From: Candidatus Hydrothermarchaeota archaeon
GTDB lineage: Archaea > Hydrothermarchaeota > Hydrothermarchaeia > Hydrothermarchaeales > BMS3B
Length of the DNA: 46,480 nucleotides
NCBI GenBank assembly: GCA_015521615.1
Contig: WANW01000029.1
Location: 1-46,480, forward strand
Direction: 5' to 3'
The position numbers and the translations under genes are program-made. Numbering within the stretch: the first letter of the stretch is position 1; every line of letters starts with the position of its first letter. Positions 35,492 to 38,780 of this stretch are shown here, in pieces. The notes below the pieces were generated by a model, which worked only from the letters and a program-made list of their open reading frames with translations, made no database searches and was not told where the DNA came from.

Positions 35492-35899
35492 CTATTTCCC
35501 TCCTTTCTTCTTCCTTCCCCTCTTCCTCTTTTCCTCCTCAGGCACATCCACCTTCGCGAGCATGGAAATGTAGTCAGGCTCCCGCTTTATCGCCTCTATT
35601 AAGCGGGTGGGTCCAACTATGGTTAAGCCGTGCCTTCTACCAGCGATATACTCGGCTATCTTCTCACGCAGCCCCTTTGCGCGCGAGTCTATACGATAAA
35701 ATTCTATGCCATGAAATTCCTCTGTATCTATCTCGCGCATCGTGGCCTCAATAAGCTCTGCCTCTTCCTGTGGCTCCAGCGCCTCCTCGAGCACTACGAT
35801 AATGTTTCTCTTAATCTTGTCAAGAATGAAACTGATCTTTTCGGCACTGCCCTTCCTCGCAAGGGTTTCCGCACTCACAAAATCCAGTTGGATCTCCAT
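35492..35899 (-). CDS. DUF2073 family protein (OapB-like)
   Basis: 'MEIQLDFVSAETLARKGSAEKISFILDKIKRNIIVVLEEALEPQEEAELIEATM'; sits between the GTPase and Zn-ribbon genes. Confidence 0.85.
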   Translation of the reverse strand: MEIQLDFVSAETLARKGSAEKISFILDKIKRNIIVVLEEALEPQEEAELIEATMREIDTEEFHGIEFYRIDSRAKGLREKIAEYIAGRRHGLTIVGPTRLIEAIKREPDYISMLAKVDVPEEEKRKRGRKKKGGK

Positions 35900-35908
35900 A
35901 GCTCCACC

Positions 35909-36556
35909 TCAGGTAAGGTGTTCCTGAATAGCCTCGTACAGCTTCTCTATGTTCTCCCCCGTGGCGGCGCTTATTGGCACCACAACATGCTGCGGAAAGG
36001 CATTTGCTATGCTCTCGGGCTGTGCTTCGGGCAGGTCTATCTTGTTTGCCACAATTATCATTGGTATCCCCCTCGCTTCCAGATTGCCTATAATCGTAAC
36101 ATTTACCTGGGTATAGGGGTCCTGGGTGGAGTCAAGCACCACAAGAACTGCGTCGACATTATCCAGCCATTTTATCGCTTCTATTACACCCTTCGTGGCT
36201 TCTCTTGCCCTTGCCTTTGCCTCTTCCTCACTCATGCCAAAAGCCTTGAAGCTCTTGTAGTCTACCTGCGTGGCTATGCCTGGCATGTCCACAATGTTCA
36301 TTCTCAGCTCTCCATTGTTCGTTGTAACAACAATATTCTCAATCTTCTGCACATGCCTGGTCTCATGGGGCACCTCCGAAACGGTGCCCACCTCCTTGCC
36401 CAGCCAGTCCAGAGAGATGCGATTCGCCAGCGTTGTCTTACCCGCGTTGACAGGACCGTAAAACCCCAGCTGTATCTGCTTCTTCCTCTTGAATATCTTA
36501 AGAAGTTTCCGTAGGCTCTTTTTGAGCTCGCTTAACATGGTGATACCTCTTTTCAT
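35909..36556 (-). CDS. Era-like GTP-binding protein (OapA-like)
   Basis: '[17 protein letters not shown]', '[11 protein letters not shown]', 'ANKIDLPEA'. Confidence 0.93.
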
Positions 36557-37400: not shown

Positions 37401-37988
37401 CTACTCAATAGTCGCGTGCCTGGTGCGCATCTCCTCTTCGGTCTTGCCCAGCCTCACCATGAGCTCCACAATAAGCGCATCAAGGAAGATGAGCACCGCT
37501 ATCTCAAAGAGCGTGCCCAAGGGCGCCAGCGGATAGTGCTCCCCCTTTATCTGGCGCATCACGAAGTCCTTCTCTCCCCTCAGCTTTGTCCTGCCCTTGA
37601 CCACCACCACAATATCCGCTAACCTACCAAGGGAGGAATTGGGGTAGGTGGTGATGAGCGCCACCTTTGCACCGACGTTCTTTGCTATCTTTGCGGCGTT
37701 CACAACACTTGTGGTCTCACCCGAGCCTGAGATGGTTATCAGAAGGTCCTCTTTCTCTATAGCAGGGGTTATAATTTCTCCAACCACAAAGACGTTTATG
37801 CCTAGATGCATGAGGCGCATGGCGAAGGCTTTGGCCACTAGGCCACTCCTGCCAGCGCCGTACACAAAAACCTTCTTAGATGAGAGTATTGCATCAATGA
37901 GCGCCTCCACCTCCTCCTCTCCGAGTTCTTCAGCCACATCCTCAACGTGCTTGGTTATGGTGAAAATGGCATCCTTCAAAACTTCCAT
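37401..37988 (-). CDS. hxlB: 6-phospho-3-hexuloisomerase (SIS domain)
   Basis: 'KKVFVYGAGRSGLVAKAFAMRLMHLGINVFVVGEIITPAIEKEDLLITISGSGETTSVV'. Start MEVLKDA (37988) preferred over 38039. Confidence 0.9.
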   Translation of the reverse strand: MEVLKDAIFTITKHVEDVAEELGEEEVEALIDAILSSKKVFVYGAGRSGLVAKAFAMRLMHLGINVFVVGEIITPAIEKEDLLITISGSGETTSVVNAAKIAKNVGAKVALITTYPNSSLGRLADIVVVVKGRTKLRGEKDFVMRQIKGEHYPLAPLGTLFEIAVLIFLDALIVELMVRLGKTEEEMRTRHATIE

Positions 37989-38060
37989 GCATGCAAGTTG
38001 CGCTTCCCAATTATAAATTTTTTCCGGGCCGGCGGACACATGTTAAAATTTAAGTATAAT

Positions 38061-38200
38061 TGTGGCTCGGCAAAACCGGAGGGCGTGAGAAGCATGATCG
38101 CCCTTGACTTGGCCGAGCTACAGGGCTGAGGGAGCAATCCCCGTTCTCGCGCCCGGGTGATAAAGCATGATCCCGGGTCGGTTAGCGGGGGAACATCCCC
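38061..38200 (+). ncRNA. Candidate tandem two-hairpin H/ACA guide RNA
   Basis: Hairpin 1: lower stem 38064-38071/38112-38119, upper stem GGGCG/CGCCC with loop UGAGAAGCAUGAU, ACA at 38120-38122. Hairpin 2: lower stem UCCCC/GGGGA (38138-38142/38188-38192), upper stem CCCGGG/CCCGGG with loop UGAUAAAGCAUGAU, ACA at 38193-38195. Confidence 0.7.
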
Positions 38201-38204
38201 GGCC

Positions 38205-38780
38205 CTACCAGAAATTTCCACAGTAGTGTCCTGTAACAGGACATCCAAGACAACGTCCTATTCTGTAGTAGTCACACTCTGCACACCTACTCTCGCTGCC
38301 GCAGGGTGGAGAGTCAGACTTCTCAATCTTCATCTTTACAGGAAAGATGAGGTCTTTATAAGAGGTTATTACAACATTTACCTCAACATCCTCCACGTCA
38401 TCCCTGCTGCGTATGTGTGCATCCACCAGTGCGTCGATGGTGGTGAGGTCCTCGCTAACAAAGAATAGTGAGAGATTCCTCTTGCCAGAGATCACAAATC
38501 CGTTTAGAAAGTAGGGACACCCGCGGAATTTTTTGAGAATTTCAGTAGAGTTCTGAGCGGTGAGCTCAACGTTTACCAGATAGAGGTCTATCTTCTTGAA
38601 ATTCATACCTATTAGGAAGGAGAGGGCACCCTTTTCCTTGAGCTTTCTCAGCCTCACGCCAACGCTGGGCTGGCTTATCCCCACCTGCTTGGCAATTTCA
38701 CTCTGGGAGAGGTCAGGATTCTCCTCGAGAAGGGAGATTATCTTCTTATCCTTCTCGTCCAGGTCCAGCCATTCTCTTAT
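38205..38780 (-). CDS. Lrp/AsnC family transcription regulator with C-terminal Cys-rich tail
   Basis: Upstream extension gives REWLDLDEKDKKIISLLEENPDLSQSEIAKQVGISQPSVGVRLRKLKEKG (HTH); C-terminal 'CGSESRCAECDYYRIGRCLGCPVTGHYCGNFW'. The track starts at an internal GTG (38684); an in-frame ATA at 38780 follows an SD. Confidence 0.8.
   Translation of the reverse strand: MREWLDLDEKDKKIISLLEENPDLSQSEIAKQVGISQPSVGVRLRKLKEKGALSFLIGMNFKKIDLYLVNVELTAQNSTEILKKFRGCPYFLNGFVISGKRNLSLFFVSEDLTTIDALVDAHIRSRDDVEDVEVNVVITSYKDLIFPVKMKIEKSDSPPCGSESRCAECDYYRIGRCLGCPVTGHYCGNFW

What the first reader, a model, noticed from the sequence alone, without database searches (positions are those of the whole stretch)
38061..38200. 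Unannotated tandem H/ACA guide RNA
Two consecutive hairpins in the gap between hxlB and an Lrp-type gene each have a lower stem, a bipartite internal loop, a GC upper stem capped by a K-loop (UGA...UGAU with a shared AAGCAUGAU), and an ACA box directly 3' of the lower stem (38120-38122, 38193-38195). Top-of-pocket-to-ACA spacing is ~15-16 nt in both, as expected for pseudouridine guides. Implied targets are roughly 5'-CAAGUCA-UN-CCGGUUUU-3' (hairpin 1) and 5'-CUAACCGA-UN-CGCGAGAA-3' (hairpin 2).
Basis: partly seen in the sequence, partly recalled or inferred. Interest (0 to 1): 0.8.

Follow-up and report, generated by a model that had tools for sequence, protein, structure and literature searches.

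The report
Two-headed archaeal pseudouridine guide RNA
This is an unannotated small RNA gene of a deep-sea hot-vent archaeon whose two hairpins most likely steer the cell's pseudouridine enzyme to one site in each ribosomal RNA, both sites already known in Pyrococcus; it is a real new gene of a well-known kind, with an unusual extra helix around its second hairpin.

Summary
Window 38064-38195 (+) encodes two consecutive canonical archaeal box H/ACA guide hairpins. Both satisfy the published 'productive' geometry: 10 stacked layers from pocket to K-loop, and 14 nt from the pocket-closing pair to ACA. A strict descriptor finds exactly these two in the 46-kb window and none in 46.8 Mb of simulated sequence.

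The gene is conserved as a tandem in five genomes of its genus (Ca. Pyrohabitans, Hydrothermarchaeota) and in two further families of the class. Its stems show compensatory changes, and its protein neighbours are not conserved. A model of hairpin 2 recovers Pab91, the experimentally proven guide of Pyrococcus 23S Psi2685.

Corrected, hairpin 1 pairs 11 of 11 around 16S U906 of the sister genome G001, equivalent to P. abyssi S922. Hairpin 2 pairs 5+5 (two wobbles) around 23S U2681, the Pab91 site.

One odd feature is a 10-11 bp helix, found only in this genus, that encloses hairpin 2 together with its ACA box. Transcription and modification are untested. I rate it a new member of a known kind.

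The parts
38064..38122 (+). H/ACA hairpin 1 (fold type 10/6/8): lower stem 38064-38071 with 38112-38119 (8 bp); upper stem 38079-38085 with 38099-38105 (7 bp, G.U closing pair); ACA 38120-38122
   Evidence: Fold; descriptor hit; CM R1 hits in 5 genus genomes and G021; closing pair to ACA = 14 nt, read from sequence
38072..38078 (+). Hairpin 1 5' guide strand AAAACCG; pairs 3' of the target (16S CGGUUU)
   Evidence: Six consecutive Watson-Crick pairs with the 16S of G001
38086..38098 (+). Hairpin 1 K-loop UGAGAAGCAUGAU (L7Ae site)
   Evidence: U.U + tandem G.A read from sequence; invariant in five genus genomes, and in G021 except the last base (UGAG)
38106..38111 (+). Hairpin 1 3' guide strand GACUUG; pairs 5' of the target (16S AAGUC)
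   Evidence: Five consecutive Watson-Crick pairs with the 16S of G001
38138..38195 (+). H/ACA hairpin 2 (fold type 10/5/8-9): lower stem 38138-38145 with 38184-38191; upper stem 38151-38157 with 38172-38178 (G.U closing pair); ACA 38193-38195
   Evidence: Fold; descriptor; Rfam Pab91 sub-threshold hit 24.5 bits, E 0.014; CM R2 recovers Pab91 loci
38146..38150 (+). Hairpin 2 5' guide strand CUCGC; pairs 23S GUGAG (one G.U)
   Evidence: aligned to the Pab91 guide
38158..38171 (+). Hairpin 2 K-loop UGAUAAAGCAUGAU (L7Ae site)
   Evidence: U.U + tandem G.A read from sequence; in G021 U.U becomes C-G
38179..38183 (+). Hairpin 2 3' guide strand CGGUU; pairs 23S GACCG (one G.U)
38122..38133 (+). Outer helix, 5' arm (AGGGCUGAGGGA)
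   Evidence: MFE and centroid fold; duplex -19.7 to -23.8 kcal/mol in all 5 genus genomes with two fully compensated pairs; absent in G021
38196..38206 (+). Outer helix, 3' arm (UCCCCGGCCCU); overlaps by 2 nt the stop codon of the convergent gene
38205..38684 (-). Convergent neighbour, Lrp-like regulator by resemblance (no Pfam or NCBIfam hit); ends at the outer helix
   Evidence: no lrp hit in L005/L038 (G001)
37401..38039 (-). Divergent neighbour hxlB (6-phospho-3-hexuloisomerase); listed start GTG 38039 is probably too long
   Evidence: TIGR03127, E 8e-65; no hxlB hit in L003/L035 (G003) or L006/L037 (G021)

Best explanation
A free-standing gene for a two-headed box H/ACA guide sRNA. Each hairpin binds L7Ae at its K-loop and Cbf5-Nop10-Gar1 at the lower stem and ACA box. 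Hairpin 1 directs pseudouridylation of 16S rRNA at the position equivalent to P. abyssi S922 (E. coli 950): 5'-AAGUC-Psi-G-CGGUUU-3'. Hairpin 2 directs pseudouridylation of 23S rRNA at the Pab91 site, P. abyssi Psi2685: 5'-GACCG-Psi-C-GUGAG-3'. In Ca. Pyrohabitans an extra helix clamps the two sides of hairpin 2, ACA box included; it probably protects or defines the RNA's 3' end, or serves in maturation. Shown by sequence: anatomy, conservation, covariation, homology of hairpin 2 to Pab91, and complementarity. Inferred: transcription, RNP assembly, modification, and the role of the outer helix.
For: Anatomy: 10-layer GA stem, 14-nt spacing, 8-9 bp lower stem and ACA in both hairpins, which is the 'productive' class of PMC4652768. 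Only these two descriptor hits in the window and 0 in 46.8 Mb of simulated sequence. Conservation: tandem in G000-G004, G021 and G020. Compensatory changes: 11/15 pairs of hairpin 2 over 12 relatives, score 0.575 vs 0.239 in shuffles and at most 0.171 when slid; 2 pairs of hairpin 1. Homology: model R2, built only from these RNAs, recovers two loci (E 6e-9, 2e-8) that Rfam calls Pab91 above its gathering score. Pab91 makes Psi2685 in vitro and targets it in vivo (PMC6138745). Targets: hairpin 1 scores 19.0 at 16S U906 against 11.0 for the next best; 0 of 4000 shuffled pockets reach it anywhere in the two rRNAs. U906 is 16 nt before the E. coli-966 equivalent, and P. abyssi's 966-equivalent is 938 (PMC7005279), so it is S922, listed as a true target in PMC4652768. 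In G028 the R1 relative L046 has 3' guide GGCUCC where 16S reads GGAGCC instead of GAAGUC, so guide and target change together. Machinery: Cbf5 (E 3e-145) and Nop10 (E 1e-24) are in this genome. Flanking genes differ in G021, G003 and G001 while the RNA stays.
Against: No transcript or pseudouridine data exist. The window's own genome lacks rRNA contigs, so targets were read from the sister genome G001. Hairpin 2's pairing alone is not unique: 5.8% of shuffled pockets score as high somewhere, and 16S U1461 scores nearly as well (15.3 vs 15.6). The G021 hairpin 2 pairs only 3 bp plus a wobble on the 5' side of the target, and G020's pairs 3 bp. Sister genera G005-G019 gave no convincing hit, so the gene is patchy. 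No convincing promoter was resolved.
Confidence: 0.94

Rival explanations
1. A cis-acting RNA element (terminator, leader or attenuator) of hxlB or of the convergent regulator gene, whose stems only resemble H/ACA hairpins.
For: It lies in the gap between the two genes, and its 3' arm touches the regulator's stop codon.
Against: The RNA persists where hxlB or the regulator gave no hit next to it, and in G021 next to unrelated genes. It is on the plus strand, both neighbours are on the minus strand, and K-loop geometry is strand-specific. Guides match rRNA.
Confidence: 0.02
2. A genuine H/ACA RNA, but hairpin 2 guides 16S U1461 (5'-UAACCG-U-A-GCG, near the 3' end of 16S) instead of, or as well as, 23S U2681.
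For: Six Watson-Crick pairs on the 3' guide strand if the lower stem opens, and a total score close to that of the 23S site (15.3 vs 15.6).
Against: Only three pairs on the 5' guide strand. The 5' guide CUCRC is shared from Pyrohabitans to the Pab91 loci and fits GUGAG of 23S. Pab91 is proven for the 23S site.
Confidence: 0.07
3. A degenerate or pseudogenised guide that no longer forms an active RNP because the outer helix blocks access of Cbf5's PUA domain to the ACA box of hairpin 2.
For: The ACA of hairpin 2 lies in an internal loop between two helices in this genus.
Against: Guides, K-loops and both ACA boxes are conserved in the genus while stems vary by compensation, which points to purifying selection.
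Confidence: 0.03

Closest known systems
Pab91 (Rfam RF02795), Pyrococcus H/ACA sRNA for 23S Psi2685
   Same: Hairpin 2 has the same guide strands apart from wobble-compatible changes (CUCGC vs CUCAC; CGGUU vs CGGUC), the same geometry, and is recovered reciprocally by covariance models.
   Different: Pab91 is a single hairpin with a shorter K-loop. Here it is the second head of a two-headed RNA and, in this genus, is enclosed by an extra helix. It scores only 24.5 bits against the 71-bit Rfam cut-off, which is why annotation misses it.
Pyrococcus guide of 16S Psi S922 (one of two candidate guides; PMC4652768)
   Same: Same target uridine for hairpin 1.
   Different: The guide must differ in sequence because the 16S flank differs (GAGCG in the genomes that carry Rfam Pab91, AAGUC here). 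No Rfam family matches hairpin 1. I did not retrieve the Pyrococcus sequence.
Multi-hairpin archaeal H/ACA sRNAs (Pab35/HgcF, Pab40/HgcG, Pab105/HgcE, Afu4)
   Same: Several H/ACA units head to tail in one RNA, each with its own K-turn or K-loop and ACA.
   Different: Different units and targets. I found no report of a helix enclosing a unit together with its ACA box, but much of that literature was not readable here.

Membership tests
archaeal box H/ACA guide sRNA | Hairpin with lower stem (7-9 bp), bipartite pocket and upper stem | tested here: met
   two units
archaeal box H/ACA guide sRNA | ACA (ANA) box 14-15 nt 3' of the pocket-closing pair | tested here: met
   14 nt in both; rule from PMC4652768
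archaeal box H/ACA guide sRNA | K-turn or K-loop at 10 stacked layers from the pocket | tested here: met
   7 pairs + U.U + 2 G.A = 10 in both; rule from PMC4652768
archaeal box H/ACA guide sRNA | Conserved helices with compensatory changes | tested here: met
   (the G021 rows in A3 and A4 were shortened or padded by one base to keep register; A5 is unedited)
archaeal box H/ACA guide sRNA | Guide strands complementary to a UN dinucleotide site in rRNA or tRNA | tested here: met
   16S U906 and 23S U2681 of G001
archaeal box H/ACA guide sRNA | Cbf5 and Nop10 present in the host | tested here: met
   Cbf5 and Nop10 found
archaeal box H/ACA guide sRNA | L7Ae and Gar1 present in the host | not tested
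archaeal box H/ACA guide sRNA | Expressed, RNP-bound, and its target U is pseudouridine | not testable with these tools
   no RNA-seq or modification data
Pab91 (RF02795), hairpin 2 | Rfam gathering score (71 bits) | tested here: not met
   24.5 bits, E 0.014; none of the Hydrothermarchaeota members scanned reaches it
Pab91 (RF02795), hairpin 2 | Guides 23S Psi2685 | tested here: inconclusive
   Complementarity to the homologous site (4 WC + 1 GU on each side) and reciprocal CM detection; modification not tested

The most novel reading that the evidence does not exclude
Ca. Pyrohabitans has evolved a 'clamped' H/ACA RNA in which a covarying 10-11 bp helix closes over hairpin 2 and its ACA box. 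Cbf5 must then read an ACA box held in an internal loop rather than a free 3' tail. The clamp could be a thermostabilising or maturation device, or a switch on guide activity. The two-headed RNA would also couple one small-subunit and one large-subunit modification in a single transcript.
Probability: 0.35. Interest if true: 0.5.

Novelty: new member of a known kind. Interest (0 to 1): 0.37.

Why it matters
It adds a well-supported H/ACA guide for an uncultured archaeal phylum (Hydrothermarchaeota). It shows that the Pab91 guide of the peptidyl-transferase region is older and wider than its Rfam family, and that the guide for 16S S922 changes together with its target. It also gives a concrete, testable case of an H/ACA unit whose ACA box is enclosed by a helix. 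Practically, Rfam scanning misses it: no match at gathering score anywhere in the window.

Tried and rejected

Own rRNA: absent from the MAG, so G001 was used.

Pattern search for the S922 guide in six other archaeal genomes: uninformative. The pattern did not cover the CGCUC guide expected for G026 and G088, and the hits are at chance level by the tool's own control.

Weak R1/R2 matches in G008, G078, G042, G052, G016 and G006: judged chance; those of G016 and G006 were not inspected by eye.

Promoter: a GTTAARATT element 21-22 nt upstream of hairpin 1 is conserved in the genus but sits too close for an archaeal TATA box of a transcript starting at the stem. TTATAAATT at 38011-38019 could equally serve a leaderless hxlB. 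Left open.

Minus strand as the RNA: the near-palindromic hairpin 1 also matches R1 in reverse (E 2e-4), but the minus strand folds worse.

Full report
WHAT IS THERE. The window is contig C29 of a 1.8-Mb archaeal draft genome. Its closest relatives are Ca. Hydrothermarchaeota MAGs, including Ca. Pyrohabitans jungbluthii JdFR-16. In the gap between hxlB (minus strand, 37401-38039 as listed) and an Lrp-like gene (minus strand, 38205-38684; no Pfam or NCBIfam hit), the plus strand folds at -82.4 kcal/mol, z = -5.25, into two hairpins. Hairpin 1 is 38064-38122 and hairpin 2 is 38138-38195.

GEOMETRY. Counting by the rules of Toffano-Nioche et al. 2015 (PMC4652768), both upper stems have 7 pairs, including a G.U pair closing the pocket, plus a U.U and two sheared G.A layers, which makes 10 layers. 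Both have 14 nt from the closing pair to ACA. Guide strands are 7 and 6 nt (hairpin 1) and 5 and 5 nt (hairpin 2), with 8-bp lower stems. This is the 'productive' class, in which 14 of 15 active Pyrococcus guides have 10 layers and all have 14-15 nt. A script with this descriptor finds these two places and nothing else in the window, and none in 46.8 Mb of Markov sequence.

CONSERVATION. Nucleotide search finds the RNA in all four other genomes of the genus at 86-97% identity and partly in G021 of the same class. Covariance models of each hairpin add G020 of the same class (R2 E 5e-11, with an R1 match immediately upstream), so the tandem exists in three families. Stems vary by compensation: 6 of 15 hairpin-2 pairs within the class, and 11 of 15 over 12 relatives on an alignment with no edited rows (score 0.575; shuffled mean 0.239; best slid version 0.171). 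Hairpin 1 has two compensated pairs over four sequences. The alignment for one search was fitted to the model, which leans toward the structure, but the slid controls stay far below. G021 carries the RNA beside unrelated genes; the loci from G003 and G001 gave no hit for hxlB and lrp respectively. The RNA is therefore its own gene, not a cis element.

HOMOLOGY. Rfam at its cut-offs reports nothing in the window. With relaxed thresholds the top match is hairpin 2 to Pab91 (E 0.014, guide strands aligned). In reverse, the model built only from these RNAs finds, at E 6e-9 and 2e-8, two loci in complete genomes G088 and G026 that Rfam labels Pab91 above its gathering score. Pab91 guides Psi2685 of P. 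abyssi 23S rRNA, shown in vitro and stated for in vivo (PMC6138745).

TARGETS. The MAG has no rRNA, so I used G001 of the same genus. Hairpin 1 pairs AAGUC-[UG]-CGGUUU of 16S at U906 with 5+6 Watson-Crick pairs. The next best site scores 11.0 against 19.0, and none of 4000 shuffled pockets reaches it. U906 is 16 nt upstream of the base equivalent to E. coli 966. That base is 938 in P. abyssi (PMC7005279), so the target is P. abyssi S922, one of the redundant 'true targets' in PMC4652768. The 16S flank varies between lineages (AAGUC here, GAGCC in G028, GAGCG in G026). The R1 relative in G028 (L046) carries GGCUCC, complementary to its own GGAGCC. That is guide-target co-change, although L046 has one extra C in its 5' guide and needs a third unpaired target base.

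Hairpin 2 pairs GACCG-[UC]-GUGAG of 23S at U2681 with 4 Watson-Crick pairs and one wobble on each side. By itself this is not significant over all uridines (234 of 4000 shuffled pockets do as well). At this one prior site it is (22 of 20,000, or 3 of 20,000 with the longer pocket). Its force comes from the independent Pab91 homology. From my own knowledge the site corresponds to E. coli 23S Psi2605.

THE OUTER HELIX. In all five genus genomes the sequence just after ACA1 pairs with the sequence just after ACA2 (10-11 bp, up to 13 in G003; -19.7 to -23.8 kcal/mol). Against the window, G002 and G001 replace two G-C pairs by A-U and C-G. G021 has only a short linker and no such helix. The ACA box of hairpin 2 thus lies in an internal loop. 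I found no description of this arrangement, but the library lacks much of the primary literature (for example Muller et al. 2008). Function is inferred only.

MACHINERY. Cbf5 and Nop10 are encoded in the genome. L7Ae and Gar1 were not searched.

VERDICT. It is an ordinary, previously unannotated member of a known class, with one genus-specific structural oddity that deserves a test.

Noticed in passing
   Followed up: partly
window 38061-38119, minus strand: Hairpin 1 is nearly palindromic, so its reverse complement also matches the H/ACA model (E 2e-4) and ends in a fortuitous ACA; the K-loop geometry is lost on that strand.
   Followed up: partly
window 35492-36556, minus strand: OapB-family gene (PF09846) next to a small GTPase; from memory, such pairs lie near replication origins in some archaea.
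   Followed up: no
L046:1501-1560: In G028 a separate H/ACA hairpin whose guide matches that genome's own 16S at the S922 site, so the two heads are separate genes there (the other is L056).
   Followed up: partly
L047:1501-1560, minus strand: In G070 the hairpin-2 orthologue lies directly upstream of a tRNA gene, possibly co-transcribed.
   Followed up: no
L060:1501-1563, minus strand: G092 carries a hairpin-2-like H/ACA RNA with altered 5' guide (UCCCC); target not checked.
   Followed up: no
window 37976-38039: The listed hxlB start (GTG 38039) is probably too early; ATG near 37989, about 22-30 nt from TTATAAATT at 38011-38019, would make it leaderless.
   Followed up: no
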